NCBI GenBank assembly: GCA_023129415.1
Contig: JAGMCF010000198.1
Span: 1-35,127, forward strand
Direction: 5' to 3'
From: Candidatus Cloacimonadota bacterium
GTDB lineage: Bacteria > Cloacimonadota > Cloacimonadia > JGIOTU-2
DNA length: 35,127 nucleotides
Below are positions 1 to 35,127 of the stretch, one piece after another. The notes beneath the pieces are model-generated. The model saw only the letters and a program-made list of their open reading frames with translations. It was not told where the DNA came from and made no database searches. The first letter of the stretch is position 1. The number at the start of each line of letters is the position of its first letter. The translations under genes and the position numbers were made by a program.

Positions 1-1758
1 GTAAAAGCACAAGCAACTCCAGAAGGATTAATTTCTTATCTTTCTACTGATCTTCAAAAGTTGGTTATAGAAGATTTAAAATTAAAAGGTGAAGAAGTAG
101 TGGCTCCAAAGAGGTATATAGGTATTGATGAAAAAATACAACTTGCTGGTAATCCAAACACCCCTCCTGAAACATTAGCTGAATTAGCAAAAGATGAAAA
201 ATTTCGTTGGGAAGTAGCAGAAAATCCAAATACTTCTCCAGAGATTTTAGCTGAATTAGCAAAAACTAAAGAGGATCATATTCGTTATAGAATTGCAGAA
301 AATCCAAATACTTCTCCAGAAACATTAGCTGAATTAGCAAAAGATGAAAACAGAGATGTTCGTTATAGAGCAAAAGAAAATCCAAATACTCCTCCAGAGA
401 TAAAAAAACAGTTAAAACAAACTGTTAGTTTAAATATGAGGAAGAAAGCTACGTTAGTTGTGACATATCCTGATTATGATTCTAATATGTTAAATCCAGA
501 AGAATTAGTTCGATTTTATGAGCAGGAAAAAGAAAAGTTATTAGAAGAATCCTTTGCTGATGAGGTATTAAGTAAATTGCTTTACGGTTTGGAACAGTAT
601 ATGCAAGTCATTGAGGATCAATTGGAACAAAGAGATGGTATAGTGGAAAAAGAAGATTTAGAAGAAATAAAAAACTATATTAATCTTATTTCTAATGGTT
701 TAGCATCATCTGATTTAAATCAAAAAATTATTGCAGTTGATCAAGTTATTAATAGATTTCATGGTGATTTGATGGTTTCTATTATGAATGGTGATAAAGA
801 AGAATTAAGTCAATTGTTAGATGAGCTTGCAGGAATAAGAAAATCTATAATTCCTTATACTCCTGAAGAGGAACAATCTGCGCATAATTTAAACATGAAA
901 AAGAAAGCTATTTCTGATATGGAAGTTCCTGAAAATTGGATAGTAAAAGATAAAACTGATAAAAAATTAAGACGTACAAATCCCCCGAAACATGACAAAA
1001 ACGATTCTTTAGTAGAACATAATATTGATCCACGAATTGATATGGCTTCGTTGAATATGAGAAAGAAAGCAAGAACTAAACCAGATTTAAGAGAATTGTT
1101 AGAAGGAGTAAAAAATGAAATTGCACCTGAATTGGATTTTGATTATGTTATAAGAATTTCTAAGTCTGAACCTTTGGCTATGAATTATATGTTTGGTACA
1201 CTCGGTATGAAAAATAATTCAGTTTATGTGTTTAACCCCGGATTTTTGGATGATCGTTTACCTGAGTTTTTTATTAGAGGAGTAATAGCCCATGAGTTAA
1301 TGCATGATATAGAAAGGAGAACAGGAGAAAGAACAACTGAGGTAGAAGAAGATCCATGGGCTGAACCAAAAAAAGATCCATGGGAATTTCATATGAAAGT
1401 ACAAAAAGCATGTGATTTATATAATCCAGCTTTAATATTTGGAATAGAAGATCCTTTAATGAAAGAGGTATTTGGTTATAATATGTCTTGGCTTGAAAAA
1501 GAGACTTCATTGAGTATGAGAAAGAAATCTTTTGAAGGTCAACCTGAAAATTACAGAGGTCCTTCATTACTTCTAAGAGAAGATATGGGACCTGATTATC
1601 CGGGGGGACCAGCTCAAGCAGAAATAGAAGGAACTGCTGAAGACGTACGATGGAATAAAGAAAATTTGTTAAAAAAGAAAAAGCCTATACAAGAGCAAGT
1701 ATTTCATGATTTTAATATTCCTTTTGGCCACGAAGGAGAAGAAGTAAGACAACTATAA
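1..1758 (+). CDS. LRV-repeat / HExxH multidomain protein with repeated SLNMRKKA motif (5' partial)
   Basis: The frame is open from base 1 with no stop, so the gene begins outside the window; the TTG at 61 is not a convincing start. Bases about 145-420 encode four repeats of 24-26 residues built on N-P-N-T-P/S-P-E-x-L-A-E-L-A-K, resembling leucine-rich-repeat-variant (LRV) helical repeats. A motif S-L-N-M-R-K-K-A or close variant occurs four times (427-450, 886-909, 1048-1071, 1507-1530), each between segments of different character. The third segment contains A-H-E-L-M-H (HExxH at 1291-1305), the zinc-binding and catalytic signature of metallopeptidases. The protein has no signal peptide in view. 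Function is not known. A structural or virion-associated polyprotein cut at the repeated motif is one possibility (inference). Reading frame certain; domain calls moderate. Confidence 0.8.
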   Translation, partial: VKAQATPEGLISYLSTDLQKLVIEDLKLKGEEVVAPKRYIGIDEKIQLAGNPNTPPETLAELAKDEKFRWEVAENPNTSPEILAELAKTKEDHIRYRIAENPNTSPETLAELAKDENRDVRYRAKENPNTPPEIKKQLKQTVSLNMRKKATLVVTYPDYDSNMLNPEELVRFYEQEKEKLLEESFADEVLSKLLYGLEQYMQVIEDQLEQRDGIVEKEDLEEIKNYINLISNGLASSDLNQKIIAVDQVINRFHGDLMVSIMNGDKEELSQLLDELAGIRKSIIPYTPEEEQSAHNLNMKKKAISDMEVPENWIVKDKTDKKLRRTNPPKHDKNDSLVEHNIDPRIDMASLNMRKKARTKPDLRELLEGVKNEIAPELDFDYVIRISKSEPLAMNYMFGTLGMKNNSVYVFNPGFLDDRLPEFFIRGVIAHELMHDIERRTGERTTEVEEDPWAEPKKDPWEFHMKVQKACDLYNPALIFGIEDPLMKEVFGYNMSWLEKETSLSMRKKSFEGQPENYRGPSLLLREDMGPDYPGGPAQAEIEGTAEDVRWNKENLLKKKKPIQEQVFHDFNIPFGHEGEEVRQL

Positions 1759-4100: not shown

Positions 4101-4967
4101 ATGAAAAAAATACTAATAATATTGTTTCTTTTTTCTTTTTTGTTGATGGGATGCGGTTCTAAATTAATAGATTCTTCTACAACAAACAGTAATAATGGAT
4201 TTTCTATATTTGTTTCTGAATCTGAAAAAAGTGAAATTATTGTAGTAAAGTTGCGAGGAAGTGTTAATTTAGAGTGGGCAGATCAAATTGAAGAAGCATA
4301 TAAAAAAGAAAATTGTATTTGGGTTATTGCTTGGATTGAATCCAGAGGAGGAACATTTATAGAAACTAAACTTACAGCACATAAAATTAGGGCTTTAACA
4401 AGAAAATATAAAAAAGAGCTTATAGTTTATTCTGAAAGAGGATTATATTCAGGTGCATATTGGATTGCGTGCGAAGCTAATGCTATTGTAATTGCTCCTT
4501 CTGGGAATACGGGCTCGATAGGAGTTTATTCTGTAAGAGTTGATGTGACAGCTGCTGATTCTGTTAATGGAGTTAAATATCATTTAATAAAGTCAGGGAA
4601 ATGTAAAGCAATGTGGTTTCCTCATAGTAAACTTACGGATGAAGAGAAAAAAGTTCTTCAAAAACAGATAAATAAATTATATTATGAATTTCTTTGGCAT
4701 ATTTATAATTGTAGAGGAAATCAAATATATCAAGCTTGTTATGCATTAGTAGGAGCAAATGTAAATGATACTACAGTGGCTAACTATTTAGAAAAGGTTT
4801 GTGATGGTAGATCTTATGATGCAAAAGATGCTTTTACTTTTGGGTTAATAGATAAAGTAATGTATTTTGACGAAATGATTAAAGATTTGTATAAAAATGT
4901 ACCTAATACAGATATTGTAACAGAAGATGGTGAAAAGATTGAAGATTTTTATCCAGAGGATAATTAA
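4101..4967 (+). CDS. SppA-like (S49) serine peptidase, predicted lipoprotein
   Basis: 288 residues. The N-terminus is a lipoprotein signal: a lysine pair, a hydrophobic core and lipobox LMGC with Cys18. The body follows signal-peptide peptidase A / ClpP-fold S49 peptidases: IIVVKLRG at about 46, AWIESRGGTF (79-86), YSGAYWIACEANAIVIAPSGNTGSIGV with likely nucleophile Ser117, and a downstream Lys (K167 or K169 in SGKCKAM) as candidate general base. C-terminal ARxAxxxGLID-like segment (AKDAFTFGLIDKV). S49 enzymes are known in phages as capsid proteases, but a lipid-anchored version would act at the membrane, more like bacterial SppA. It overlaps the MgtC-like gene by one base (TAATG), so the two are probably translationally coupled. 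Confidence 0.83.
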   Translation: MKKILIILFLFSFLLMGCGSKLIDSSTTNSNNGFSIFVSESEKSEIIVVKLRGSVNLEWADQIEEAYKKENCIWVIAWIESRGGTFIETKLTAHKIRALTRKYKKELIVYSERGLYSGAYWIACEANAIVIAPSGNTGSIGVYSVRVDVTAADSVNGVKYHLIKSGKCKAMWFPHSKLTDEEKKVLQKQINKLYYEFLWHIYNCRGNQIYQACYALVGANVNDTTVANYLEKVCDGRSYDAKDAFTFGLIDKVMYFDEMIKDLYKNVPNTDIVTEDGEKIEDFYPEDN

Positions 4968-5386
4968 TGTTATTTGTACCTTCTGATTTTATTATAAAAG
5001 TTTTGTTAGCAATTGGTTTAGGTGCTTTAATTGGTTTTGAAAGAGAATTTTTTAATAAACCAGCGGGATTAAGAACTAATATATTAGTTATGTTAGGTTC
5101 AATGTTAGCTGCTTATATTTCTTCTTGTTTTGTTGATAGTGGAACTGATGTTACACGAATTGCAGCAAATATATTGACAGGGTTAGGTTTTATTGGGGGA
5201 GGAGTAATACTTCAAAGTAAAGGATCAGTACATGGACTTACTACGGCTTCTTGTATTTGGATATGTGGTATTATTGGTATGACAGTTGGTTTTGGTTATT
5301 ATATTGAGGCAATAATTGTTAGTGTAGTAACTTTTATAGTATTGTATGGTTTAGGTTATTTAGAACATTTTATGAAACGAAAATGA
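4967..5386 (+). CDS. MgtC/SapB-family membrane protein
   Basis: 139 residues, which matches the conserved N-terminal membrane domain of MgtC/SapB without the C-terminal ACT-like domain. Hallmarks: GALIGFERE (19-27), AGLRTNILVMLGS (33-45), RIAANILTGLGFIGGGVIL and GLTTASCIW-CGIIGM, with four or five hydrophobic segments. Bacterial MgtC proteins help survival at low magnesium and can inhibit F1Fo ATP synthase. What a phage copy does is unknown; altering host membrane energetics is an inference. GAGGA at 4956-4960 and a TAATG overlap couple it to the SppA-like gene. It is the last gene before the terminator at 5451-5503. Confidence 0.85.
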   Translation: MLFVPSDFIIKVLLAIGLGALIGFEREFFNKPAGLRTNILVMLGSMLAAYISSCFVDSGTDVTRIAANILTGLGFIGGGVILQSKGSVHGLTTASCIWICGIIGMTVGFGYYIEAIIVSVVTFIVLYGLGYLEHFMKRK

Positions 5387-6024: not shown

Positions 6025-6285
6025 ATGAAGATCACCGAAGTTAGAATAACATTGAGAGATGAGCCAAAGCTCAAAGCTTTTGTTGATGTTGTGTTTGATA
6101 ATGCATTTGTAATTCATGGGATGAAAGTTATTAAGGGACGAAATGATCTCTTTGTTGCAATGCCAAACAAAAAAGGAAGGGATGGTTCTTTTAGGGATAT
6201 TGCGCATCCAATTAACAATGAAATGCGAGTTGAGTTGGAATCAGCAATATTAAATGCTTATGAAATGAAGTTGCGAAAAGAATAG
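6025..6285 (+). CDS. spoVG: SpoVG-family nucleic-acid-binding regulator
   Basis: 86 residues, the usual SpoVG size without its acidic tail. Signature positions are clear: MKITEVRI at the N-terminus, AFVDVVFDNAFVIHGMKVIKG, LFVAMPNKKGRDGSFRDIAHPINNEMR. SpoVG proteins are small regulators shown in several bacteria to bind DNA and RNA and to affect septation, capsule or virulence genes. A phage copy could redirect host or phage expression (inference). It has its own putative promoter and an AAAGGAG ribosome site. Confidence 0.92.
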   Translation: MKITEVRITLRDEPKLKAFVDVVFDNAFVIHGMKVIKGRNDLFVAMPNKKGRDGSFRDIAHPINNEMRVELESAILNAYEMKLRKE

Positions 6286-7961: not shown

Positions 7962-8516
7962 ATGTTTCTTTTTAAACCAAAGTTTAAATTTAAAGATATT
8001 AAAGATATTCTTCCTGTTCATAAAACAAGGAAGTGGAAACGTAGAAAACGGAATAATATATTAGAGATAATTATACATCATTCCGCAGCTATAAGTAAAA
8101 AAGGAAAAGGGTTAGAAGAAATAGAAAATATAGCAATATATCACAAATCTCTAGGAAATCATATTTCTAAAAGAGGTTGTCCTGGAATTTGTTATCCTTG
8201 GGTAATAGATAGAGATGGAGTTATATATAAAACATCTGATCATGAAAATATAACTTGGCATTGTAAAAGACATAATCTTAGAGGTTTAGGTATTTGTCTT
8301 TTAGGAAAATTTACAAAAGGCGGACAAAAACCAACACTAGATCAATTACGATCTTTAGAAAAATTGTTATTTTATTTGTCATCTACATTAAAAGTGAGTA
8401 TTCATCATGTTTATTGTCATAGGGATTTTAAAAATACTATATGCCCAGGAGATCTTCTTTATTATTATGTTTGTTTGAGAAAAGCATATCCAAAGATTTT
8501 TATAAAAGATTTTTAA
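7962..8516 (+). CDS. N-acetylmuramoyl-L-alanine amidase (endolysin, Amidase_2/PGRP fold)
   Basis: 184 residues. Motifs of the T7-lysozyme type: IIIHHSA (zinc ligand H39 or H40), GICYPWVIDRDGVIYK, HENITWHCKRHN, GLGICLLGKF and YCHRDFKNTICPGD with ligands H153 and C161. It cleaves the amide bond between MurNAc and L-Ala in peptidoglycan, giving host lysis. No signal peptide and a highly basic N-terminus (about 5-31). A holin is not obvious next door; the small membrane proteins at 3825, 24459 or 27598 are candidates only. Confidence 0.88.
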   Translation: MFLFKPKFKFKDIKDILPVHKTRKWKRRKRNNILEIIIHHSAAISKKGKGLEEIENIAIYHKSLGNHISKRGCPGICYPWVIDRDGVIYKTSDHENITWHCKRHNLRGLGICLLGKFTKGGQKPTLDQLRSLEKLLFYLSSTLKVSIHHVYCHRDFKNTICPGDLLYYYVCLRKAYPKIFIKDF

Positions 8517-8531: not shown

Positions 8532-8912
8532 ATGGATATATGGGGATCAAATAAGAAAAATAATAATGACGAAAATGATTATTTGAAGAATTTAGAAAAG
8601 AAACGTCAAGAAAAGGAAATATTAAAAGAATATACTAAAGAAAGAAAGTTGCGAGCAATAGACAAAATACAAAAAGTATTAGACTTACCTTTTTTTACTG
8701 ATTATAATACAGAAGGTTTAAGTACATTTCAAAGACTAACTATTTTACAATTACTAAGAAAGATTGGTGAATGTGAAGGAGAAATTCCTAGAGAATTTTG
8801 GTGTAAGAGTTGTAAAAGGAAAGAAAAAAGAGTGAAAGAACTTATAAAAAGATTTCGAGATAATCAAAAAAATTGTACAAATTTGAACAAACGTAAAGAT
8901 CTTTTTACTTAA
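8532..8912 (+). CDS. Charged protein with CEGEIP-EFWC-x2-CKR motif
   Basis: 126 residues, Lys/Glu-rich, mostly helical. Contains LLRKIGECEGEIPREFWCKSCKR at about 75-97. Essentially the same motif (CEGEIPVEFWCDDCKR) occurs in the protein at 27108-27518, so the two share a small Cys-containing, probably zinc-binding, module. Function unknown. GGAAGG precedes the ATG. Confidence 0.7.
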   Translation: MDIWGSNKKNNNDENDYLKNLEKKRQEKEILKEYTKERKLRAIDKIQKVLDLPFFTDYNTEGLSTFQRLTILQLLRKIGECEGEIPREFWCKSCKRKEKRVKELIKRFRDNQKNCTNLNKRKDLFT

Positions 8913-8939
8913 AATTCTTTATAAAAGGAGGTTTTTAGA

Positions 8940-11768
8940 ATGAAAAAATTTCTTTTGTTAGCAGTAATGCTTTTATTTATACTTATATCAACAAATGTAG
9001 TTTTTGCTCAGCCTTTAGATCAAATGATAGATACGAGCACTACTAATAAATATGTTCGTGTTTATTTTTCGCCTGGATCTGAAGAAATTGCTCAAATTTG
9101 TGTTGATATTGCAAATGAACATATAAATTGGATTGAAGATGTAAAAGGAATACCACTTGAGCAAATTCCTGTTCCAATATTTCTTTATTCGAACAGACAA
9201 GATTTTAGATTATCTCAAGTTATGGATGTACAAGGAGCGGAAGGAGTAACATTATTATGGTATCCGAAAATTTTAGTTTATTTTAATGGTTCATTTTTAG
9301 ATTTGAGACATGTGGTTACACATGAATTAAACCATTTTGTAACATTTGATTATCTTACTAGAAATTACAAAGATTGTGTTAAAAGAGGAAAAAAAGCAGA
9401 TACTTTGAAATATGATTATAAATATGATATGAATCCTTATTTCTCGGAAGTAGATGAACCTGCGCGAAAGTATTTTGAGATTTTTTTGTCAGGAAATTTA
9501 CCTTTGTGGTTGTGCGAAGGAATAGCAGAAGCATGGTCAAATCCATATCAAGCGCAAAAAGAATGTATGATAAGGGATTGTATTTTATGGCGTGGACCAT
9601 ATAATATTTGGGAGTTAATGCAATATCCTTCATTTCTTACAATTTATAAAATGGGAGAATCTGCTGTAGAATTTATGGAACAACAAGCAGGAGATTATGC
9701 AATAAAGACTTTTTTAGATTATGCGTGTAGTGAAAGTATAAATAAAGCATTTTCAGTTTTGTTTGGATTTGAAGAAGAAACTGCTTTGTTTGATTTCAAT
9801 AAATATTGGAGAATGTATTTAGTTAATAAATATTTTGTTGTAGATGGGGTTGAACAATTATATCTTAACTCTCCCGATACTTTAAATGTAGGGTTAGCAA
9901 GTTGGGCAGTTTTAGGTGGAAAGGCAACTTATTCTTATAGAGAATCACAAGTTCAAATAACAAATGGTGATGATGTTTTTGCAAAGGATCATAATATGCA
10001 AGATAATGATTTGGGAACTTTAACAAAGAATGCATCAATTTGTGAAAAGTATCTTATATATAGCAGTTTACATAATAGAAAGGATATTATAACCATTTAT
10101 GATTTAGAAAAGAAAAAACGAATAGAAACATTCGCATTTGAAAATATTGTTTGTATTTCATCTCCAGCATATAATGATAAAGATCTTGTTTTTATTGGTC
10201 AAAGAGAAAATGGATTTGAAAATATAATGGTGATGAGAAATAGAAAATACTACCAAGCATTAAAATCTAATTGTGATATTCGTTCTTTGGTATTATATAA
10301 TGATGAAGTTTTTTTCATATCAGATTTGGATACAGCGGAAGTTTATGATCTTTATAAATATTCAATGAAAACAAGACAAGTAAAAAGATTGACAAAAAAT
10401 ATTAATGCCAGAGATCTTACGTTATCGGAAAATAAAAGATTTCTACTTTTTGTAGTAGATGGAAAGGAATATAATTATTTATGTTTTTATGATTTAGTGA
10501 GTGAATATGTTTATATAAGTTCTCCACTTGCTGAATATATTCAATTTCCTTATATAGGAAAGAAAGTTATTGTGACGATGCTTGCGAATGGGAAATATTA
10601 TAATTATGTTATTAATCCGATAATAACAACAACTGCAAAATATAATATAAAAGAAAAAAGAGATTCTTGGTATAAGATTTATAAGAAACATAAAGTGACG
10701 CCTGCTAAATTTAAATGGCATTTTACTATATCAGATATAATTATGGCTTATGATGATTATTTTGGAACACAAGTAGAAGGGTTAATGTCTGTAGTTCGAG
10801 AAGATGGAACAAAAAGGTGGCAGTTTATAGCTTCAGAAAATGGTATTGGAGTATTGAAAAGTTGGCATCAATTATGGTCTACAAAATTTCTTGCTTTCCA
10901 ATGGTATAATTTATATCGTTTTTATACTACTAGAAATGTAATAAAAGAAAGATCAGTTGCATTTGTGGGAGGATATATTTTTAAATTGGATGAATATTCT
11001 GAAGTTTATTCGAGTTTAATGATAGGAAATAGGAGGAGGAGTTTTTACTTATCGTGGAATGATTCACATTATGGAGGAATTTATTTTAAATATCCTGGGA
11101 AACATCAATTTACTGAAAATTATAGATTAAAACCTACTATGTTAAATTTTGATTCTCATGAAGATTTTGTATATAAAAGATATTCAAAAGGATATGTGTC
11201 TAATTTAGTATTGTCTTTTTATCGAGACATAACACGGTATTCTCAGTACTGGGCACCTTTGGCTGGAACTAAATTTTGGTTGTATCAGGATATTGATGTT
11301 GATTTTACAAATAAAAAAATAGTTAGTGCAAGAACTCAGGGAGTATTGGTAAAATATTTTAGTTTGGGAGATCCTGTATGTTGGGCACATAGAATAGCTG
11401 CAGGAAAGGTGATAGGTGCTTATCCCTTAAAATATGAACTTGGAGGGCCTACATCTTTTAGAGGACGAGAATGGTTATCTATGTATGTGAAAAATTATTG
11501 GTTGTATAGTATGGAAGTAAGATTACCTTTTGCGTACTACGCTGGAATATTTGGCAAAACAGGGCCTGGGTTTCTTTTGCATCATATAAAAATAAAGTTG
11601 TTCGGAGATATTGGTCAAGCTTGGAATAAAAAACCTAAGGATGTATTGTGGGATGTTGGTTTTGGATTAAGTGGGTGGTTTGGATACACGCCTTTAAATT
11701 TGTATTGGGTTTATAATTCAGATCATAAGAAATTTAGACCATTTTTAAGTCTATCATATGATTTTTAG
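8940..11768 (+). CDS. Secreted peptidase-MA / beta-propeller / Omp85-like barrel protein
   Basis: 942 residues, the largest complete gene here. Residues 1-23 are a signal peptide (cleavage likely after VFA). Residues about 35-290 form a gluzincin-like peptidase domain: VVTHELNHFV (H128, E129, H132) and LWLCEGIAEAW with E193 as likely third zinc ligand, as in peptidase MA. Residues about 340-600 show repeated strand patterns consistent with a TolB/WD40-like propeller (e.g. LIYSSLHNRKDIITIYDL, VFIGQRENGFENIMVM). The last about 300 residues are strand-rich and include GGPTSFRGRE (FRG at 840-842), resembling the Omp85 loop-6 (V/L)RG(F/Y) signature; the protein ends SLSYDF with a terminal Phe, as in outer-membrane barrels. 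This order is known in bacterial proteins, but is surprising in a phage. Confidence 0.8.
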   Translation: MKKFLLLAVMLLFILISTNVVFAQPLDQMIDTSTTNKYVRVYFSPGSEEIAQICVDIANEHINWIEDVKGIPLEQIPVPIFLYSNRQDFRLSQVMDVQGAEGVTLLWYPKILVYFNGSFLDLRHVVTHELNHFVTFDYLTRNYKDCVKRGKKADTLKYDYKYDMNPYFSEVDEPARKYFEIFLSGNLPLWLCEGIAEAWSNPYQAQKECMIRDCILWRGPYNIWELMQYPSFLTIYKMGESAVEFMEQQAGDYAIKTFLDYACSESINKAFSVLFGFEEETALFDFNKYWRMYLVNKYFVVDGVEQLYLNSPDTLNVGLASWAVLGGKATYSYRESQVQITNGDDVFAKDHNMQDNDLGTLTKNASICEKYLIYSSLHNRKDIITIYDLEKKKRIETFAFENIVCISSPAYNDKDLVFIGQRENGFENIMVMRNRKYYQALKSNCDIRSLVLYNDEVFFISDLDTAEVYDLYKYSMKTRQVKRLTKNINARDLTLSENKRFLLFVVDGKEYNYLCFYDLVSEYVYISSPLAEYIQFPYIGKKVIVTMLANGKYYNYVINPIITTTAKYNIKEKRDSWYKIYKKHKVTPAKFKWHFTISDIIMAYDDYFGTQVEGLMSVVREDGTKRWQFIASENGIGVLKSWHQLWSTKFLAFQWYNLYRFYTTRNVIKERSVAFVGGYIFKLDEYSEVYSSLMIGNRRRSFYLSWNDSHYGGIYFKYPGKHQFTENYRLKPTMLNFDSHEDFVYKRYSKGYVSNLVLSFYRDITRYSQYWAPLAGTKFWLYQDIDVDFTNKKIVSARTQGVLVKYFSLGDPVCWAHRIAAGKVIGAYPLKYELGGPTSFRGREWLSMYVKNYWLYSMEVRLPFAYYAGIFGKTGPGFLLHHIKIKLFGDIGQAWNKKPKDVLWDVGFGLSGWFGYTPLNLYWVYNSDHKKFRPFLSLSYDF

Positions 11769-12569: not shown

Positions 12570-12977
12570 ATGAAGAACTATATAATGATCTTATGTTTTA
12601 TAACTATGATTATGTTTATTGGATGTTCCTTTCCTACAAATACTTCATATAATGATCATTTTTATGAACAAAAAGCTTATGTTAATGATTTAGACGCTTG
12701 GGGAAATGATGCTGAAGTTATGGTGTATGGAGATGTAAAATCTGAATTGCCGGGAATATTTCTTCATGCTGTTGTAATTGGTAAAACAGGCTTGAAAGTT
12801 ATTTCTGATCCCTTTTTTGTAAGATCTCCAGATAATTGGACTCCATTCTCTATTATAGTATACGTTGGACCAAATCAAATTAAGTGGGCCGAAAATGTTT
12901 ATATCGAAATAGAAGATATGGATGGAGAAGTGATTTATGAAGGATATAGTCAGATGGTAGATATAGATTTTTATTAA
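12570..12977 (+). CDS. Predicted lipoprotein
   Basis: 135 residues with a lipoprotein signal (hydrophobic 4-17, lipobox FIGC with Cys19). The mature part is strand-rich (LPGIFLHAVVIGKTGLKVI; NWTPFSIIVYVGPNQI; NVYIEIEDMDGEVIYEG), suggesting a beta-sandwich. A phage lipoprotein is often a superinfection-exclusion factor, but nothing here proves that. SD AAGGAAAAG. Confidence 0.7.
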   Translation: MKNYIMILCFITMIMFIGCSFPTNTSYNDHFYEQKAYVNDLDAWGNDAEVMVYGDVKSELPGIFLHAVVIGKTGLKVISDPFFVRSPDNWTPFSIIVYVGPNQIKWAENVYIEIEDMDGEVIYEGYSQMVDIDFY

Positions 12978-14480: not shown

Positions 14481-14708
14481 ATGAAATATTTTGTATTTGT
14501 AAGTGTTGATCATAAAAATTATCGCCTTGCATTATCAGTTGATTCACTTAAAGAAGTGAATATTCATATGAATAACAAAAAATTATACCCAACTCTTTAT
14601 CCTTATGATTTTATAGTTATTCGTGGTAATCAATTGTCTATTGTTGGAAATGATAAATACATAGGTGCAAAAATTGATAAAAAAGGGAAAAATAATGAAC
14701 CAGATTAG
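14481..14708 (+). CDS. Hypothetical 75-aa protein
   Basis: Preceded by a perfect AAAGGAGG and one base after the ligase stop. Alternating strands (KYFVFVSVDHKNYRLALSV; DFIVIRGNQLSIVG) suggest a small beta domain. Overlaps the next gene by 14 bases. Not recognised. Confidence 0.65.
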   Translation: MKYFVFVSVDHKNYRLALSVDSLKEVNIHMNNKKLYPTLYPYDFIVIRGNQLSIVGNDKYIGAKIDKKGKNNEPD

Positions 14709-15399
14709 CGAAAAAATTAAAAAATTACATTTGGATATATTATATCCAACAGTGATGGTGGGAACCGGTAAAGATAATGGTTCGGGGGTTGTTATATATT
14801 CAAAAAAGAAAAAAGGTAATAGTAGGTGGGAAACATATATAATTACCAATTATCATGTAATTGCATGGACACTTAAAGCTAAACCAAGAAGAAAGATAAA
14901 TATAACTTTTTTTAAATATAAAAGGTGGAGTGAAAATATAGGAAATAAAGTTATTAGTGCTACGGTTGTGACATATGATAGAAAACGAGATTTAGCTCTT
15001 TTAAAGCTTTATTCTAAAGAAAAATACATAGCAAAATTGCATTCTAAAAATATAAATAATGTTTATATTTTTGATGAAGTGTATACGTGCGGTTGTAGTC
15101 TTACTTATCCTCCTGTAATAACTTCAGGACATATTTCTGGATTAGATAATTATCAATGGTTAGTAACATCTCCAATTACAGATGGTAATAGTGGTGGTGG
15201 TGTTTATTTAAAAAATGGGCAATTAATAGGAATTTCTTGTGAAGTTGGGGTTAATAATGAGATTGAAGTAAATTATTTATGTTTTTTAGTTCCAATTAAT
15301 AGTATTTATGATTTTTTGGAAAAGAAAAAGTTTCAATTTATTTATGATTCAAAATTTACTTCAGCCCAGTGTGAAAAAATGAGAAAACGAAAAAAATGA
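14695..15399 (+). CDS. Trypsin-like (S1C/HtrA-like) serine protease, cytoplasmic
   Basis: 234 residues. Start at ATG 14695 (AAAGGG ahead). The chymotrypsin-fold triad is complete: ITNYHVI (H54), RKRDLALLKL (D99) and GNSGGG (S166), with the spacing of HtrA/DegP proteases. There is no signal peptide, TM segment or PDZ domain, so it should act inside the cell, on phage or host proteins. VMVGTGKDNGSGVVI at 20-34 is the typical first strand region. Trypsin-like proteases are uncommon in phages. ATGA overlap with the next gene. Confidence 0.87.
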   Translation: MNQISEKIKKLHLDILYPTVMVGTGKDNGSGVVIYSKKKKGNSRWETYIITNYHVIAWTLKAKPRRKINITFFKYKRWSENIGNKVISATVVTYDRKRDLALLKLYSKEKYIAKLHSKNINNVYIFDEVYTCGCSLTYPPVITSGHISGLDNYQWLVTSPITDGNSGGGVYLKNGQLIGISCEVGVNNEIEVNYLCFLVPINSIYDFLEKKKFQFIYDSKFTSAQCEKMRKRKK

Positions 15400-16995: not shown

Positions 16996-17457
16996 ATGAA
17001 TACCCTTTGTATTATCCCTTGTGGAAGTAAAAAGATTTGGGATAAGAATTCAGACATAGGACCAACTAAAGCAAAAGACGTTTATATAGGAGTATTTGCT
17101 CAAAAATGTAGAGATTGGGCTAAACTATTTTATCCAAACACATGGTGTATTTTATCTGCAAAATATGGTTTTCTATTTCCCAATGATATAGTACCCGGTC
17201 CTTATAATGTAAGTTTTAAGAATGTAGACCTAAATCAAATTACGATACATGAATTAAGAAAGCAAGTAGAAGAAAAGAATTTAAATGAATATGATCAGAT
17301 CGTAGTTTTAGGTGGAAAATTTTATGTAGATAAGATTAAAAGACTTTTTAAGAATGCAGAAATTATAACACCATTAGCTGGATGTAAAGGTATTGGATAT
17401 ATAATAAGTAAACTTAAAACTGAAATAGATAAAGAAACTTTAAGAAAGGAAGCGTAA
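16996..17457 (+). CDS. DUF6884-like protein
   Basis: 153 residues: CIIPCGSKKIW at the N-terminus, GPTKAKDVYIGVFAQKCRDWAK, WCILSAKYGFL, PGPYNVSF, and VVLGGKFYVDKI / PLAGCKGIGYI. This pattern is that of a widespread phage and bacterial family I associate with DUF6884. The conserved PCGSKK and SAKYG motifs suggest a nucleotide- or base-binding enzyme, but the reaction is not established. Overlaps the next ATG by one base (TAATG). Confidence 0.7.
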   Translation: MNTLCIIPCGSKKIWDKNSDIGPTKAKDVYIGVFAQKCRDWAKLFYPNTWCILSAKYGFLFPNDIVPGPYNVSFKNVDLNQITIHELRKQVEEKNLNEYDQIVVLGGKFYVDKIKRLFKNAEIITPLAGCKGIGYIISKLKTEIDKETLRKEA

Positions 17458-17600
17458 TGATGAAAGTAAAAGATCTGATAGAAAAACTTAAGAGATATAA
17501 CCCTGAAGCAGAAACATCTGTAGTTGTTCATAATCGTCTTGAACACTTTTCTTTAACATATGGAGGAGAAAGGAAAAGTTATAACATTATTGGAGATTGA
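17457..17600 (+). CDS. Small conserved phage protein, 47 aa
   Basis: Two consecutive ATGs (17457, 17460) behind AAGGAAG. Begins MKVKDLIEKLKRYNPEAETS, the start typical of a family of short phage proteins that continue VVVHN...FSLTYGG. This copy ends soon after the FSLTYGG stretch. Role unknown. Confidence 0.65.
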   Translation: MMKVKDLIEKLKRYNPEAETSVVVHNRLEHFSLTYGGERKSYNIIGD

Positions 17601-17843
17601 TAAAGATGGTAATATAGTACAAAAAGGAGAAGATAAATAATATAAAGATGTTGGAATAAATTTTATAAAAAACAAGAAAGAAAACTTATAATAATATAAT
17701 ACAATAAAGTAAAGAAAACCTTGAATAGAGGAAAGAAGTAAGAAAGAAAAACATTGATAATCTTTTTGATTATATTGAACACGGTTTATTATTTAATAAT
17801 TATTATCCAATTTCAAACATTATCAAAAGTATTGAATAATATA

Positions 17844-17908
17844 TAGCTAATAACCTTATTCGTAATCAATAATTAAGAACTCTTAATTATTAGTAAGGTT
17901 ATTAGCTA
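17844..17908. repeat. Large inverted repeat, 15 bp + 11 bp arms
   Basis: TAGCTAATAACCTTA (17844-17858) matches the exact complement at 17894-17908. Nested inside, AATAATTAAGA (17868-17878) pairs with TCTTAATTATT (17881-17891). No T-run follows, so it is not a plain terminator. Confidence 0.8.
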
Positions 17909-18060
17909 ATTTTGTGTTTATCCCTTGAATTTAACCTTGATAAACCATGTTTATTAGAAAGTAGTATAGAACTTGGGAGTTAGAAGTAAATGGTTAGAGA
18001 GGGTTTAAATAGGGTAGTAGTGGAGTTTAAAACAGTTAGTGGGGGTAAATTAAAGGGAAA

Positions 18061-18119
18061 GCTCACACACGTTCGAAATTTTTTTTGAGAAGTTCAAGAA
18101 AAAATAAAACGTTTTGAGC
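18061..18119. repeat. Imperfect inverted repeat
   Basis: GCTCA at 18061 and TGAGC at 18115 close a stem that continues through ACGTT/AACGT and T-rich/A-rich arms around a GAGAAGTTC loop, with bulges. It lies directly upstream of promoter P2. Confidence 0.45.
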
Positions 18120-18140
18120 TAAATGATTCTTTTTGTTTAA

Positions 18141-18182
18141 AATAATTTATTCCAACCACTACTGTTTTGTGTATAATATATT
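18141..18182 (+). promoter_or_regulatory. Class-1 promoter P2 (TTTATTCCAACC type)
   Basis: AATAATTTATTCCAACC box, then TTTTGTGTATAATATATT with TATAAT at 18172-18177. Same upstream box as at 18434 and 18730. Confidence 0.82.
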
Positions 18183-18208
18183 AGAATATAAAATAGGAGG
18201 AGGTAGAG

Positions 18209-18421
18209 ATGATTGATGCAATTAAAGAAATTGCTAAATTAAAAGATGGTGAGTCATGGATTTGGCCAGAGAGTGATTATGGAAAAGCAGAAATATGGTT
18301 AAAGAACAATCTTTATTTTTTGTTTGGGATCCCAAGTTATGGTGGTGCTCCTATATTTTATAAAGCTTTTGAAAAGGATGAAATTAATACGTTAGTGAAG
18401 ACAGTAAAATCATGGACATAA
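18209..18421 (+). CDS. Hypothetical 70-aa protein
   Basis: First gene of the small-gene cassette, with AGGAGGAGG ahead. IDAIKEIAKLKDGESWIWPE, then YFLFGIPSYGGAPIFYKAF and a helix (INTLVKTVKSW) suggest a small alpha/beta domain. Not recognised; likely an early host-takeover gene from its promoter context (inference). Confidence 0.65.
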   Translation: MIDAIKEIAKLKDGESWIWPESDYGKAEIWLKNNLYFLFGIPSYGGAPIFYKAFEKDEINTLVKTVKSWT

Positions 18422-18433
18422 TTGAGAAGATAA

Positions 18434-18475
18434 AATAATTTATTCCAACGGCTCTTGTTTTGTGTATAATATATT
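18434..18475 (+). promoter_or_regulatory. Class-1 promoter P3
   Basis: AATAATTTATTCCAAC box, TATAAT at 18465-18470. CGGCTCTTGTTTTGTGTATA is also found at promoter P8 (21224). Predicted leader only about 13 nt. Confidence 0.82.
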
Positions 18476-18489
18476 AACAAGGAGGAGAG

Positions 18490-18720
18490 ATGAGAAAAGT
18501 TAATTCAGCTACTGATAAAGAAGGAAGTAAGATAGAAGTGGGATCGATGGTGGAAATTTTTGATATATATAATAAAAAGTTTACTGGTAGAAAGATTATT
18601 GTTACTGATATTCATCACCAGGGAAGAGATGGAACGATTTTACATTTTGATGAACCACCTAATTTAGATTTTCCACATAATTTTACACATGTGGCATCAG
18701 ATGTAAAAGTATGTAAATAA
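18490..18720 (+). CDS. Small SH3/KOW-like beta-barrel protein
   Basis: 76 residues: IEVGSMVEIFDIYNKKFTGRK, IIVTDIHHQGRDGTILHFDE and HVASDVKVCK. The G-x-x-V...G...V-x-F-x...D-V layout resembles short SH3/KOW-like barrels found in many phage small genes. Role unknown. Own promoter P3 and GGAGGAGAG site. Confidence 0.65.
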   Translation: MRKVNSATDKEGSKIEVGSMVEIFDIYNKKFTGRKIIVTDIHHQGRDGTILHFDEPPNLDFPHNFTHVASDVKVCK

Positions 18721-18729
18721 TAAAGAAAA

Positions 18730-18770
18730 ATAATTTATTCCAACCCACTGTTAATTGTGTATAATATATT
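18730..18770 (+). promoter_or_regulatory. Class-1 promoter P4
   Basis: TAATTTATTCCAACCC box and ATTGTGTATAATATATT, TATAAT at 18760-18765; AAGGAGG begins 8 bases after the -10. Confidence 0.82.
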
Positions 18771-18784
18771 GAAAGGAGGTAGAA

Positions 18785-19150
18785 ATGAAATTAGAAAAAA
18801 TTCAAACAATAATAAGTAGAGAAGTAATTACTGTTATTAACACCTCAGGACAATTTTTTTCTCAATACGGAAATAGTATGGGAGTAATTATTCCTAAAGG
18901 AACTAAAGGGATTATAGTGAAAATAGGAGGAAGTCAATATTTGCAAGTGAGGTTTAAATCAAAATCTATTATAAAAGCTAACTCGGATTTTTTACAAAAG
19001 GTAAAAACAAAACATTTTGGTTTTTTAGAAGAGTATGCAGGACCGTTGCAAAAGAGCATGAAAGAATCATGGGAAAAGATAGTAAAAGCAAAGGATACCA
19101 TACTTTTAACTCACGTTCCTGCGAAGAGTTTGCAAATGTTTTGTGTATAA
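18785..19150 (+). CDS. Hypothetical 121-aa protein
   Basis: N-terminal half strand-rich with MGVIIPKGTKGIIVKIGGSQYLQVRF, like an SH3-type barrel; C-terminal half helical (LQKSMKESWEKIVKAKD). Its last codons and TAA stop lie inside promoter P5 (the final residues FCV are encoded by the -10 region). Role unknown. Confidence 0.65.
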   Translation: MKLEKIQTIISREVITVINTSGQFFSQYGNSMGVIIPKGTKGIIVKIGGSQYLQVRFKSKSIIKANSDFLQKVKTKHFGFLEEYAGPLQKSMKESWEKIVKAKDTILLTHVPAKSLQMFCV

Positions 19151-19156
19151 TATATT
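19138..19156 (+). promoter_or_regulatory. Class-1 promoter P5, overlapping the upstream stop codon
   Basis: TTTTGTGTATAATATATT with TATAAT at 19146-19151. The stop TAA (19148-19150) of the preceding gene is part of the -10. AGGAGG begins five bases after the -10, so the ribosome site would be at the mRNA 5' end. Confidence 0.78.
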
Positions 19157-19171
19157 AGGAGGTGATTAAAG

Positions 19172-19333
19172 ATGAAGAATAATGATATATATGAAGGATT
19201 AAAAATGAGGAAAGGTAGAATAATAGATGGAGATAAGCTTTTACAAATATTGAGGGAAGAAAAACCAGAAATGCCTTTGGTATATATAGATTGGGTTGAA
19301 ACTGTAATGGATCGATGTAAAGTAGAGGATTAA
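19172..19333 (+). CDS. Hypothetical 53-aa protein
   Basis: ATG after AGGAGGTGATTAAAG, driven by P5. Mixed charge; GRIIDGDKLLQILREEKPEM then a WVETVMDRC helix. The P6 box begins just after its stop. Not recognised. Confidence 0.6.
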   Translation: MKNNDIYEGLKMRKGRIIDGDKLLQILREEKPEMPLVYIDWVETVMDRCKVED

Positions 19334-19334
19334 A

Positions 19335-19372
19335 AATTTACACCAACCACTATTGTTTGTGTATAATATATT
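19335..19372 (+). promoter_or_regulatory. Class-1 promoter P6
   Basis: ATTTACACCAACC box (a variant of TTTATTCCAACC) and TTTGTGTATAATATATT, TATAAT at 19362-19367. Confidence 0.8.
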
Positions 19373-19388
19373 AACAAGGAGGAATAAA

Positions 19389-19592
19389 ATGTCAGACCTA
19401 TCTAAACTAAAAGAAGTTCTTGAGAATCAACAAAAGAAAAGTATAAGGTCAGGAGGTTGGAAGCGGCTTGATTACAGTGTTGATAGAGATGAAGTAAGTA
19501 AAGAGATAACATTGATAATTGACGCCATTGATGTTGGAGTTGTTTTTACTTTGAAAGGAAGATTAATAGGAATATATAGATTTGGAGTATAA
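19389..19592 (+). CDS. Hypothetical 67-aa protein
   Basis: ATG after AAGGAGG; a TTG start inside the promoter is not credible. MSDLSKLKEVLENQQKK helix, then strands (EITLIIDAIDVGVVFTLKGRLIGIYRFG). Not recognised. Confidence 0.62.
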   Translation: MSDLSKLKEVLENQQKKSIRSGGWKRLDYSVDRDEVSKEITLIIDAIDVGVVFTLKGRLIGIYRFGV

Positions 19593-19627
19593 GATGCTAA
19601 CTCTCTAAGACTATCAAACAATTATAG

Positions 19628-19648
19628 ATCGTTTGTGTATAATATAAT
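19628..19648 (+). promoter_or_regulatory. Class-1 promoter P7 (variant)
   Basis: CGTTTGTGTATAATATAATA, TATAAT at 19638-19643. The last bases differ (ATAATA instead of ATATTA) and no TCCAACC box is present. Confidence 0.72.
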
Positions 19649-19667
19649 AGAGACAAAGGAGGTAGAA

Positions 19668-19907
19668 ATGATATGTCCAGTATGCAAACAAAGATGGGCT
19701 CCAAATGAATGGTTTGGAGAAACTGTACCAGACCGGGTGCGGGAAAGGCTTTTCCGTAACAACAAAGTGAGATGTTGCTGCACCTCAGAGTGTTTGGAAG
19801 TGGTAGATGCAATGGAAGCACAATACATTGAGTTCGGAACTGGAATGATTTATGACAACTTAGTTGAAGAAACTAAAAGAGAATTAGAGGAAGGTAAGAT
19901 AAAGTAG
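19668..19907 (+). CDS. Zinc-finger-like 79-aa protein
   Basis: ATG after AAAGGAGGTAG. MICPVCKQRW and CCCTSEC (about 34-40) form a four-Cys zinc site, followed by an acidic helical tail. Its codons carry more G and C than the neighbours. Role unknown. Confidence 0.65.
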   Translation: MICPVCKQRWAPNEWFGETVPDRVRERLFRNNKVRCCCTSECLEVVDAMEAQYIEFGTGMIYDNLVEETKRELEEGKIK

Positions 19908-19915
19908 GAGAAATA

Positions 19916-19975
19916 ATGGAAGAAATTATTTTAGATGACGAGCCAGAACTGTTAGAGATAGCTTGGAATTGTTAA
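19916..19975 (+). CDS. Possible 19-aa acidic microprotein
   Basis: ATG behind TAGGAG, encoding MEEIILDDEPELLEIAWNC. It fits exactly between two genes with normal spacing to both, which favours a real product; length makes this uncertain. Confidence 0.42.
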   Translation: MEEIILDDEPELLEIAWNC

Positions 19976-19988
19976 AGGAGGAGAAATA

Positions 19989-20171
19989 ATGACACTAAAA
20001 AAAGGTAGTAAAATAGAAAACATACATACACAGCAGCACCGGAGAATAGTAGCAGTTGAACATATAACTATAAAACAGCATCCACTTACACGAGAAGTAA
20101 TTTATGTTTTAGATGATGGAGATAGACGGAATATAGAACTGTTGAATAAACATTGGCGGGAGGTTAAGTAA
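19989..20171 (+). CDS. Small KOW/SH3-like 60-aa protein
   Basis: GGAGGAG ahead. LKKGSKIENIHTQQHRRIVAVE and EVIYVLDDGDRRNIELLN suggest a five-strand barrel. Ends three bases before the next gene's third codon (TAAATG junction). Confidence 0.6.
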   Translation: MTLKKGSKIENIHTQQHRRIVAVEHITIKQHPLTREVIYVLDDGDRRNIELLNKHWREVK

Positions 20172-20354
20172 ATGAAGATTACCGATATCAGAATAGGTAT
20201 GCAAGTTAGAGTTTCAACATTTGATGATGATGATCTCTGTGAAAGAGAAGTAGGCGTTGTACTTTCAATCAATCCAGATTTACTTTACCCAATAGAAGTA
20301 GATTTTGCTGGGGCAGTAGTAGATTTTAAACCAGAAGATTTAGAGGAGTATTAA
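20172..20354 (+). CDS. Small KOW/SH3-like 60-aa protein
   Basis: Starts directly after the preceding stop; GGGAGG overlaps the end of the previous gene. MKITDIRIGMQVRVSTFDDD, GVVLSINPDLLYPIEVDFAG and FKPEDLEEY match the pattern of small phage barrels ending in an E-D-L-E motif. Role unknown. Confidence 0.63.
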   Translation: MKITDIRIGMQVRVSTFDDDDLCEREVGVVLSINPDLLYPIEVDFAGAVVDFKPEDLEEY

Positions 20355-20370
20355 ATAGAGGAGGTATAAG

Positions 20371-20565: not shown

Positions 20566-20580
20566 AAAAGGAGACATAGA

Positions 20581-20790: not shown

Positions 20791-20806
20791 ATGAGGAGGA
20801 ATTAAA

Positions 20807-20959: not shown

Positions 20960-21005
20960 TACAAAGCCAAAAAGTATAAACAATAAGTTCTATTAGAGGT
21001 AAGAA

Positions 21006-21212: not shown

Positions 21213-21216
21213 TTAA

Positions 21217-32900: not shown

Positions 32901-35127
32901 TTGGGTTATCTTATTGGTGGACGTATGGTGAATACCGACACATATGGAAAAGGTAAGAAAACAAATCAAGGAATAATTAAAGTACCTGAATTTAAAGCAG
33001 TTCGGGGAGCTCCTCTTAATAAAACTCAAGATTTTCAAGCAAGAATAAGATCACAAGCCGCTGATATAAGTCGAACCGCTCCTACTTTTAATGATCCACG
33101 TTATACATTTACTACTCTTTCTATTCCTACTGATTTAAGAACTTTAAATGGATTATATAGATTTTTCGATGATACTGATCCAATAGTAGGAAATGCAATT
33201 CGTCTTCATACAGAATTTCCTCTTGCAGGTTACGCATTTTCAGATTGTGGTGATCCTGGTATTAAAGCTCATTATGAAGAAATGTGGGATCGTATTCATG
33301 GGGATCAATTACTATTTGATTTAGGATTAGAATACTGGCGTATTGGTAATGTATTTTTATTTGGAGCTTGGAATGAAGTAGATTTTATGTGGGATCAGTT
33401 TGCAATTTTGAATCCAGATTATGTAACGGTTGATACTACATGGTTAAGTGACAAACCCTTGATTAAATTACAACCTGATGAAGCATTGAAAAGAATTGTA
33501 ACTACAGGACAACCTAAGTTTTTATATGAACAGTTATCTCCAGAAATTATTAAATATGTTCGCTTAGGTCAAGAAATTCCACTTGATCCTAATAATACAT
33601 TTTTTATTGCTCATAATAAAGCTCCTTATGAAGCTCTTGGAAAGTCAATTATTAAACGTCTTTTGAAAATGTTGATTTATGAAGATAGACTTAACATGGC
33701 TAATTTTGCTATTGCTACAAGACAAGTGATTCCAATTACTGTAGTAAAGTTGGGTGACCCGGCTTCGGTTGAGGAAGATCATCTTGTTACATATTACGAA
33801 AATGAGCAACTTAAAATGAAAACATTTAAACAATTATGGGATGATTATGATGGAATTATTACCTCGCATGGTGATGGAAAAGAAGTTAAGGATGTAAGTC
33901 ATTATAATCTTAAAGTAAAATCTTTAAAAGAAGATGGAACACAAGTTTGGAATCCTATTGAAAGTATTTTACGTCATCCAACTCCTGATGAAGTTGTTGA
34001 AGTTACTACTCCTCTTTCGACACTTCGAATGACAGAAGGTCATGGGTTAGTGAGAGTTAATCCAGATACTTTAGCTTTTGAACACACCACTCCTAAACAA
34101 TTAGAAGAACGCGAAGCTCCTTCAGTTGTATCTATGGATCATTATGAATATTTAGTAAAGGCTGATAAAGTTTTTGATTTACCTTTAACAACTGACTTAG
34201 TATATTTAATAGGTTTGTGGACTGCTGATGGTAGTTTTTTAGGTCATAGAAATGTTAAGGGGAAACGTATTGTATCAAGGAAAAATGTACAAATTAGTAA
34301 TAAAAATAAAGGTATTGGTTCTTATTTAGTTAAATTACCTTATAAAATTTCAGAATATATTAGTGATTCGGACATTTCATATCATATTATATTTCCAGAG
34401 TTGGTTGAGGCTTTAGTAAATTACTATGAAGTTCCTTATAAAAACGGCAGCCATGCTAAAACTGGTAAAGAAAAAGTTCCCCAGGAAATATTATTTAATG
34501 AAAATAAAAAAGTTGTAGGTGCATTTTTTGCAGGAGTTTTTGATGGAGATGGTTGGGTTAATGATGATGAGTTGGGAGTTTCGTGTGGAGCATCAAAAGA
34601 ATATCATCATTGGTTGTCATTAGCTTTACTGGCTCAAGGTATTCAAAGTAGAGTCAATGACAGAAAAGGTACTGTTTGTCCAGAATGTAGAATATCGGGA
34701 AAGAAAAACAGATTAAAGTTTTTTGATTTAGTTTCTTCTTACGTTCAACATAGTAAGAAAAAATTATATATAGAAAATTATTTAAAATCGCTTTTTGTAG
34801 CTTACCGTATTAATCAAGACAAAACGTATGTATATGATTTGGATAAAAAACAAAAAGAAATTTTATTTAAAGATAGTAGTTATAGAAGTGATGATGGCAG
34901 TCATCCACTAACTTTAGTATTGAAACATAAACGTGTTAACCAAAATTTAATTTCTAAAGCTGGAGTAGATTGTGAAGCTAAAACAGTTTGTCAAAATTTG
35001 TTTGGTATGGCTGTAACTAAAATTGAAAGAAAAAAGAAATCAAGCAAATATGTTTATGATTTAATGCTCCGAGATAATCCACACATATATTTAACTGCTG
35101 GGGACGGTTGGCTTCTCACGTTCAACA
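32901..35127 (+). CDS. Portal protein with in-frame intein (3' partial)
   Basis: TTG start at 32901 with perfect AAAGGAGG. Residues 1-288 are the N-terminal portal extein: a disordered, basic start, DDTDPIVGNAIRLHTEFPLA, DLGLEYWRIGNVFLFGAWNE and GKSIIKRLLKMLIYEDRLNM with ATRQVIPITVVKLGDP. Portals form the ring through which DNA is packaged and tail joined. From residue 289 the reading frame enters an intein; the window ends at its last Asn, so the rest of the portal lies outside. Confidence 0.88.
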   Translation, partial: MGYLIGGRMVNTDTYGKGKKTNQGIIKVPEFKAVRGAPLNKTQDFQARIRSQAADISRTAPTFNDPRYTFTTLSIPTDLRTLNGLYRFFDDTDPIVGNAIRLHTEFPLAGYAFSDCGDPGIKAHYEEMWDRIHGDQLLFDLGLEYWRIGNVFLFGAWNEVDFMWDQFAILNPDYVTVDTTWLSDKPLIKLQPDEALKRIVTTGQPKFLYEQLSPEIIKYVRLGQEIPLDPNNTFFIAHNKAPYEALGKSIIKRLLKMLIYEDRLNMANFAIATRQVIPITVVKLGDPASVEEDHLVTYYENEQLKMKTFKQLWDDYDGIITSHGDGKEVKDVSHYNLKVKSLKEDGTQVWNPIESILRHPTPDEVVEVTTPLSTLRMTEGHGLVRVNPDTLAFEHTTPKQLEEREAPSVVSMDHYEYLVKADKVFDLPLTTDLVYLIGLWTADGSFLGHRNVKGKRIVSRKNVQISNKNKGIGSYLVKLPYKISEYISDSDISYHIIFPELVEALVNYYEVPYKNGSHAKTGKEKVPQEILFNENKKVVGAFFAGVFDGDGWVNDDELGVSCGASKEYHHWLSLALLAQGIQSRVNDRKGTVCPECRISGKKNRLKFFDLVSSYVQHSKKKLYIENYLKSLFVAYRINQDKTYVYDLDKKQKEILFKDSSYRSDDGSHPLTLVLKHKRVNQNLISKAGVDCEAKTVCQNLFGMAVTKIERKKKSSKYVYDLMLRDNPHIYLTAGDGWLLTFN
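33765..35126 (+). mobile_element. Intein with LAGLIDADG (DOD) homing endonuclease, in portal
   Basis: About 454 residues, beginning at Ser (codon 33765; SVEEDHLVTYYENEQLK as block A). Block B: LRMTEGHGLV (T-x-x-H). LAGLIDADG motif 1: LIGLWTADGSF (34206-34238); motif 2: FFAGVFDGDGWV (34524-34559). Between or after them a CPEC pair. Block F: YVYDLMLRDNPHIYL, block G: GWLLTFN. The penultimate residue is Phe, not the usual His. The host Ser and Asn are both at the ends, so splicing seems possible. Confidence 0.88.

What the first reader, a model, noticed from the sequence alone, without database searches (positions are those of the whole stretch)
8940..11768. Phage gene for a secreted peptidase-propeller-outer-membrane barrel protein
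Signal peptide, HExxH peptidase (H128, E129, H132, E193), propeller-like repeats, then a barrel with FRG loop-6-like signature and terminal Phe. This architecture is known from Gram-negative bacterial genomes. In a phage it could remodel the host surface, block superinfection or act as a decoy receptor. It also argues for a host with an outer membrane.
Basis: partly seen in the sequence, partly recalled or inferred. Interest (0 to 1): 0.8.

Follow-up and report, generated by a model that had tools for sequence, protein, structure and literature searches.

The report
Phage copy of a bacterial outer-membrane protease-barrel
A large phage, probably of an uncultured Cloacimonadota bacterium, carries its own heavily diverged version of a protein that nearly every bacterium of that class has: a metalloprotease fused to an Omp85-type outer-membrane barrel, whose bacterial gene sits next to a lipid-transport gene, which suggests that the phage reworks its host's outer membrane from within.

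Summary
The gene is real. ORF 8940-11768 encodes 942 aa: signal peptide, gluzincin peptidase (H128-E129-H132...E193, all invariant), a beta-rich middle, and a C-terminal barrel. AlphaFold2 gives the barrel exactly 16 strands; the full-length model matches BamA/TamA/Sam50 and clostridial collagenase peptidase domains in the PDB. The contig is phage: it is syntenic, flank to flank, with a 168-kb IMG/VR phage that lacks this gene. The protein itself hits nothing in Pfam (above cut-off), PHROGs, NCBIfam or PDB sequence. It is nonetheless a full-length, ~20%-identical homologue of a gene found in 120 of 125 Cloacimonadia genomes (Peptidase_MA_2 + PD40 + Omp85, close to the uncharacterised 'WD40-Omp85' subfamily). 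The host bin has its own orthologue. In 75 of 85 testable cellular loci that gene lies directly behind an MCE (MlaD) lipid-transport gene. The phage copy keeps about half of the most conserved peptidase and barrel positions, including the active site, but 2 of 18 in the propeller. By analogy with PlpD, the protease should face the periplasm, so surface remodelling by an exposed peptidase is unlikely. Most likely it is an acquired envelope-takeover factor that interferes with or replaces the host protein. Superinfection exclusion and help in lysis (it sits beside the endolysin) remain open.

The parts
8924..8931 (+). Shine-Dalgarno AAAGGAGG, 8 nt before the ATG
   Evidence: sequence
8940..11768 (+). 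gene for the 942-aa peptidase / propeller-like / Omp85-type barrel protein (P0001)
   Evidence: homology
8940..9008 (+). signal peptide, residues 1-23 (by inspection; helix 2-18 in the model)
9030..9839 (+). gluzincin (Peptidase MA-like) domain, residues 31-300
   Evidence: 62.5 bits for residues 1-330 vs cellular-only profile; collagenase T/H/G peptidase domains
9321..9335 (+). HELNH, residues 128-132 (zinc-binding HExxH)
   Evidence: invariant in A3
9336..9434 (+). 33-residue insertion 133-165 after HExxH, absent from cellular relatives
9516..9518 (+). E193, third zinc ligand (W-L-C-E-G-I-A-E)
   Evidence: invariant in A3
9930..10709 (+). propeller-like middle part, residues 331-590, strongly diverged and shortened
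   Evidence: position in A1/A3; 2 of 18 conserved columns kept; beta-rich 365-506, moderate confidence
10710..11765 (+). 16-stranded Omp85-type beta-barrel, residues 591-942
11457..11465 (+). FRG, loop-6-like motif (R841 invariant)
11607..11615 (+). D890-x-G892, FxDxG-like strand motif (FGDIG)
11763..11765 (+). C-terminal Phe942 (beta-signal position)
   Evidence: invariant in A3
7962..8516 (+). neighbour: amidase endolysin (Amidase_2)
8532..8912 (+). neighbour: syntenic anchor, 43% identical to the gene in front of the same slot in the relative phage
12570..12977 (+). neighbour: small lipoprotein (MIMFIGC lipobox)
32901..35127 (+). portal protein with intein (phage hallmark)

Best explanation
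The gene is a phage-borne, strongly diverged homologue of the peptidase-propeller-Omp85 outer-membrane protein that nearly all Cloacimonadia carry and that is there usually linked to an MCE (MlaD) lipid transporter. Inferred mode of action: it is made in the infected cell, exported by Sec, and its barrel is inserted into the outer membrane by the host BAM machine through the C-terminal beta-signal. Its zinc peptidase then faces the periplasm and acts there as an envelope-takeover factor. It competes with, cleaves partners of, or replaces the host's own orthologue, altering outer-membrane assembly or lipid traffic in the phage's favour. Shown: identity (about 0.93 likely on its own), conserved active site, predicted barrel, phage location, host orthologue, gene absent from the sister phage. 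Inferred: expression, topology, host, substrate and benefit; the takeover mechanism alone is perhaps 0.4 likely.
For: Full-length homology to a near-universal class gene. Peptidase and barrel keep 23/44 and 20/41 of the >=95%-conserved columns, with catalytic and loop-6 residues intact, while the propeller, the likely partner-binding part, keeps 2/18, as expected if enzyme and membrane anchor are selected but partners changed. 16-stranded barrel; PDB matches BamA, TamA, Sam50 and collagenase peptidase domains. The host bin has its own orthologue at C237:11509-14502. MCE gene immediately upstream of the cellular gene in 75 of 85 testable loci, MlaD domain in Pfam. Phage context and synteny with a 168-kb phage that lacks the gene. 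The enzyme domain of the Omp85 protein PlpD is periplasmic and its loss alters membrane lipids (PMC11116518).
Against: No experiment on this family. The phage copy is so diverged (~20% identity, tree branch 4-10 changes per site) that a quite different role is possible. No other phage with the gene was found, so selection cannot be measured. The MCE link holds for most of the class but not for the host bin's own orthologue, whose MlaD-domain gene lies elsewhere.
Confidence: 0.45

Rival explanations
1. Superinfection exclusion or decoy: the phage protein occupies the outer membrane or disables a receptor (perhaps the host orthologue itself), so that further phages cannot adsorb or inject.
For: Lytic phages do encode outer-membrane exclusion proteins, e.g. 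T5 Llp, a periplasmic lipoprotein that jams FhuA (PMC9586334). A gene nearly universal in the class would be a good receptor. A small lipoprotein gene lies downstream (12570-12977).
Against: A decoy should keep or copy the surface loops of the host protein; the phage barrel is only ~20% identical and has an extra 46-residue stretch. A conserved zinc active site is not needed for blocking.
Confidence: 0.22
2. Lysis aid: the protein weakens the outer membrane or its peptidoglycan links at the end of infection, taking the place of a spanin pair.
For: It lies two genes behind the amidase endolysin (7962-8516). In the sister phage the same slot holds a lipoprotein and an N-acetylmuramidase, with an i-spanin-like gene close by. 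No i-spanin-like gene was seen between 6.5 and 13 kb of the window.
Against: Spanins and holins were judged only from hydrophobicity and position. A 942-aa BAM-dependent enzyme is an expensive lysis protein without precedent known to me. It may simply lie in a region of variable genes.
Confidence: 0.2
3. Passenger: an acquired host gene with little present function, kept by chance.
For: Absent from the sister phage; propeller eroded.
Against: 942 intact codons, strong ribosome-binding site, all catalytic and barrel-signature residues kept through very deep divergence.
Confidence: 0.08
4. Not a phage gene: host chromosome, chimeric contig or mis-assembly.
For: The contig comes from a bacterial bin with 7% contamination.
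Against: Portal, endolysin, dNMP kinase, RNA ligase and exonuclease in the same contig; synteny on both sides of the gene with a viral contig; composition like the phage; the host orthologue is elsewhere and ~20% identical.
Confidence: 0.03

Closest known systems
Cloacimonadia peptidase-propeller-Omp85 protein (class gene; Pfam Peptidase_MA_2 + PD40 + Omp85)
   Same: Same order of parts, same length class (942 vs ~1000 aa), same active site and barrel motifs; significant profile match.
   Different: About 20% identity; propeller eroded and shortened; 33- and 46-residue insertions; N-terminal FGxNK motif lost; not next to MCE genes; in a phage.
WD40-Omp85 subfamily of the Omp85/TpsB superfamily (Heinz and Lithgow 2014, PMC4104836)
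   Same: TolB-like propeller fused to an Omp85 barrel, no POTRA recognised; the cellular relatives match TolB and BamA/Omp85 models.
   Different: The paper describes the subfamily by its propeller; a peptidase is not mentioned in the passages read. The word 'phage' does not occur in the main text.
PlpD, patatin-Omp85 protein of Pseudomonas aeruginosa (PMC11116518)
   Same: Enzyme domain in front of a 16-stranded Omp85 barrel; enzyme domain shown to be periplasmic; loss alters membrane lipids.
   Different: Lipase instead of zinc peptidase; has a POTRA domain; bacterial, not phage.
Phage outer-membrane proteins: T5 Llp (PMC9586334) and phage porin-like or SusC-like barrels in BFVD
   Same: Phage-encoded proteins that act in, or resemble proteins of, the host outer membrane.
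   Different: Llp is a small lipoprotein; the BFVD barrels match only weakly and carry no gluzincin domain that the searches revealed. The best barrel match, A0A0R6PI85 (532 aa, E 6.6e-4), could not be identified.

Membership tests
Omp85 superfamily | 16-stranded C-terminal beta-barrel | tested here: met
   16 strands predicted for residues 585-942, pTM 0.73
Omp85 superfamily | fold like BamA/TamA | tested here: met
   Foldseek PDB top hits BamA, Sam50, TamA, E 1e-4 to 6e-4, prob 1.00; overall TM modest because the model is partly poor
Omp85 superfamily | (V/I/F)RG(F) in loop 6 and FxDxG strand motif | tested here: met
   FRG (R841) and FGDIG (D890, G892), invariant or nearly so in A3
Omp85 superfamily | sequence match to the Pfam Omp85 model | tested here: not met
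   no Pfam hit for the phage protein itself; 14 of 19 cellular homologues hit PF01103. Not a defining feature, but the reason why membership is claimed through the cellular family and the fold only
Omp85 superfamily | at least one POTRA domain | tested here: not met
   no POTRA found by profile; the cellular relatives likewise have peptidase and propeller instead, as in the WD40-Omp85 and noNterm subfamilies, which the superfamily survey counts as members (PMC4104836)
Peptidase MA clan (gluzincins) | HExxH plus downstream Glu | tested here: met
   H128, E129, H132, E193 invariant
Peptidase MA clan (gluzincins) | gluzincin fold | tested here: met
   collagenase T/H/G peptidase domains among the Foldseek hits; domain pLDDT mostly above 80
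Peptidase MA clan (gluzincins) | peptidase activity | not testable with these tools
   needs an assay
Cloacimonadia class gene (orthologue) | full-length homology in the same domain order | tested here: met
Cloacimonadia class gene (orthologue) | PD40/TolB-like propeller | tested here: inconclusive
   profile score not significant, 2 of 18 columns kept, beta-rich 365-506
Cloacimonadia class gene (orthologue) | branches inside the class orthologues | tested here: inconclusive
   very long branch; AU test does not reject host order (p 0.105) and rejects grouping with the class as a whole (p 3e-5), but long-branch effects are strong

The most novel reading that the evidence does not exclude
The phage has turned the bacterium's MCE-linked protease-barrel into a weapon: an outer-membrane enzyme, replacing spanins, that takes apart the lipid or protein organisation of the host outer membrane at lysis or early takeover. 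This would be the first phage function known to me to target MCE-linked outer-membrane maintenance.
Probability: 0.15. Interest if true: 0.85.

Novelty: new variant of a known kind. Interest (0 to 1): 0.56.

Why it matters
Phages are known to bring small lipoproteins and porins into the host outer membrane; a protease-Omp85 protein is a much larger intervention, and none was found among about 50,700 deposited phage genomes, in IMG/VR pattern scans or clearly in BFVD. The cellular counterpart belongs to an Omp85 subfamily described as not well characterised. Its near-universal presence in Cloacimonadia and its position behind an MCE gene suggest that it is the outer-membrane partner of a lipid transporter. 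If the phage targets it, both the phage function and the role of this orphan Omp85 subfamily become testable.

Tried and rejected
Host chromosome or prophage flank: rejected by phage genes across the contig and synteny with a 168-kb viral contig. Relatives of the phage protein in IMG/VR (three scans: P0001, A1, A2), INPHARED (tblastn with the phage and with the host protein) and genome contigs (P0001 patterns): none; the host protein finds only WD40-type propeller matches in phages (e.g. Thermus phage Tsatsa). The gene in the related phage records G125/G126 or C133: not found. CRISPR spacers for host proof: window halves against 123 class genomes gave only chance-level short matches, so no spacer evidence. 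Origin from host family by tree: unresolved because of the very long branch. Identity of the best viral barrel match A0A0R6PI85: guessed from memory to be a Moraxella phage protein; two Mcat records were opened and no fitting ORF was seen, so left unidentified.

Full report
What is in the sequence. The ORF at 8940-11768 (+) runs for 942 codons from an ATG 8 nt behind AAAGGAGG. It starts with a signal peptide (...NVVFA|Q), has THELNHF at 127-133 and W-L-C-E-G at 190-194, SFRG at 839-842, FGDIG at 888-892 and ends in Phe.

More than chance. Searched alone, the protein matches nothing in PHROGs, NCBIfam or PDB sequences, and nothing above cut-off in Pfam. A single-sequence search of 41 related genomes found matches in 20 of them, 19 of these being weak matches to cellular proteins of about 1000 aa and one the window itself. 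Aligned, these are full-length homologues in the same order of parts. A profile built only from cellular sequences scores 69.9 bits on the phage protein; the best of 300 shuffles scores 3.4. Cut into pieces, the peptidase part gives 62.5 bits and the barrel part 27.3, the middle part 5.3 (not significant).

Structure. AlphaFold2 on the full protein with 60 homologues gives a confident peptidase domain (about 31-300) and C-terminal barrel (about 750-942), a moderate beta-rich middle (365-506) and poor linkers. The barrel alone (585-942) is predicted with 16 strands, pLDDT 76.7, pTM 0.73, the strand number of Omp85 barrels. Foldseek against the PDB gives BamA, Sam50 and TamA first, and clostridial collagenase peptidase domains (gluzincins) among the next.

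The contig. The window is the whole of contig C110 in a 3.46-Mb bin. Loci found with the cellular homologues carry the titles of Candidatus Cloacimonadota, and the window's bin shares its family and class with genomes among them, so the bin is Cloacimonadota. The contig carries a portal protein with intein, dNMP kinase, SbcD-like exonuclease, RNA ligase, amidase, 3D-domain wall hydrolase, tRNAs, an M24 (methionine-aminopeptidase-like) peptidase, SpoVG, MgtC and an SppA-like lipoprotein. Two IMG/VR contigs are close relatives: a 168-kb one (portal 89%, exonuclease 75% identical) and a 73-kb one. The 168-kb phage is syntenic with the window on both sides of the gene. At the gene's slot, directly after the homologue of 8532-8912, it has a 116-aa lipoprotein and an N-acetylmuramidase instead, and no homologue elsewhere in the record. 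So the gene is an accessory gene of this phage lineage. A second contig of the bin (C133, 43.5 kb, with a baseplate-like protein, many glycosyltransferase-like genes and replication genes, by inspection) is probably from the same or a sister phage.

Host. Not proven. Composition matches the bin (30.4 against 30.7% G+C, tetranucleotide correlation 0.97), the phage spoVG is 74% identical in DNA to a Cloacimonadota gene, and the protein's known homologues are in Cloacimonadota with a few in Zixibacteria and Eisenbacteria. No CRISPR spacer was found.

The cellular counterpart. The homologue occurs in 120 of 125 class genomes, usually once (the count includes the host bin); the host bin has its own copy at C237:11509-14502. 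All 19 scanned have Peptidase_MA_2 and PD40, and 14 reach Omp85. The gene directly upstream is an MCE protein (Pfam MlaD) in 75 of 85 loci with enough sequence. This suggests, without proof, that the cellular protein is the outer-membrane partner of an MCE lipid transporter. By architecture it is closest to the uncharacterised WD40-Omp85 subfamily of Heinz and Lithgow (PMC4104836).

What changed in the phage copy. Of columns conserved in at least 95% of cellular sequences, the phage copy keeps 23 of 44 in the peptidase, 20 of 41 in the barrel, and 2 of 18 in the propeller. It has a 33-residue insertion behind HExxH and a 46-residue one in the barrel, and lost several propeller stretches. In trees it sits on an extreme branch; its placement cannot be trusted. 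The pattern reads as constraint on enzyme core and membrane anchor, with the likely partner-binding part free or under a different constraint.

How it most likely works. From established biology: Sec export, insertion by BAM through the C-terminal signal. The enzyme domain of a comparable protein, PlpD, is in the periplasm, against earlier belief (PMC11116518). So the phage peptidase most likely acts in the periplasm on outer-membrane or periplasmic proteins. The simplest account is an envelope-takeover protein that competes with or replaces the host protein. Exclusion of other phages (as T5 Llp does by another route, PMC9586334) and help in lysis (neighbouring endolysin; spanin-like genes in the sister phage) are the main rivals. 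Surface display of the peptidase is the least likely.

Novelty. Phage-encoded outer-membrane barrels exist, but none with this architecture was found in PHROGs, INPHARED or IMG/VR pattern scans, and the BFVD structure matches are weak or unidentified. It is a new variant of a known kind: a phage copy of a host envelope gene, of an unusual and uncharacterised type. Limits: one phage, no second copy, no expression data, function inferred.

Noticed in passing
L010, L019, L045, L049 and others, upstream of the class gene: In Cloacimonadia an MCE (MlaD) gene lies directly upstream of the peptidase-propeller-Omp85 gene in 75 of 85 testable loci (in some with an ABC ATPase before it), which suggests an outer-membrane partner for an MCE system in this phylum.
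   Followed up: partly
window 34100-35127: Intein with LAGLIDADG endonuclease inside the portal gene, cut by the contig end; the 168-kb relative has an 89%-identical portal.
   Followed up: no
window 4101-5386: SppA/S49-like lipoprotein next to an MgtC-family membrane protein, both kept in the sister phage: more envelope-directed genes.
   Followed up: partly
window 6025-6285: Phage-encoded SpoVG, up to 74% identical in DNA to Cloacimonadota genes, conserved in both relative phages.
   Followed up: partly
window 14665-15399: HtrA/trypsin-like protease without signal peptide, with homologues in the relative phages (twice in the 168-kb one).
   Followed up: no
G000:C133 (L168-L170): 43.5-kb second phage contig in the bin with a long run of glycosyltransferase-like genes and a QueD-like gene; its end is 87% identical to window 1-450 (repeat-rich LRV gene).
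   Followed up: partly
window 1-1758: Leucine-rich-repeat-variant protein; homologues of 1185-3263 aa in the relative phages; both phage contigs of the bin end inside such a gene.
   Followed up: no
window 16996-29000: Roughly 12 kb of very small genes, most without any family match.
   Followed up: no
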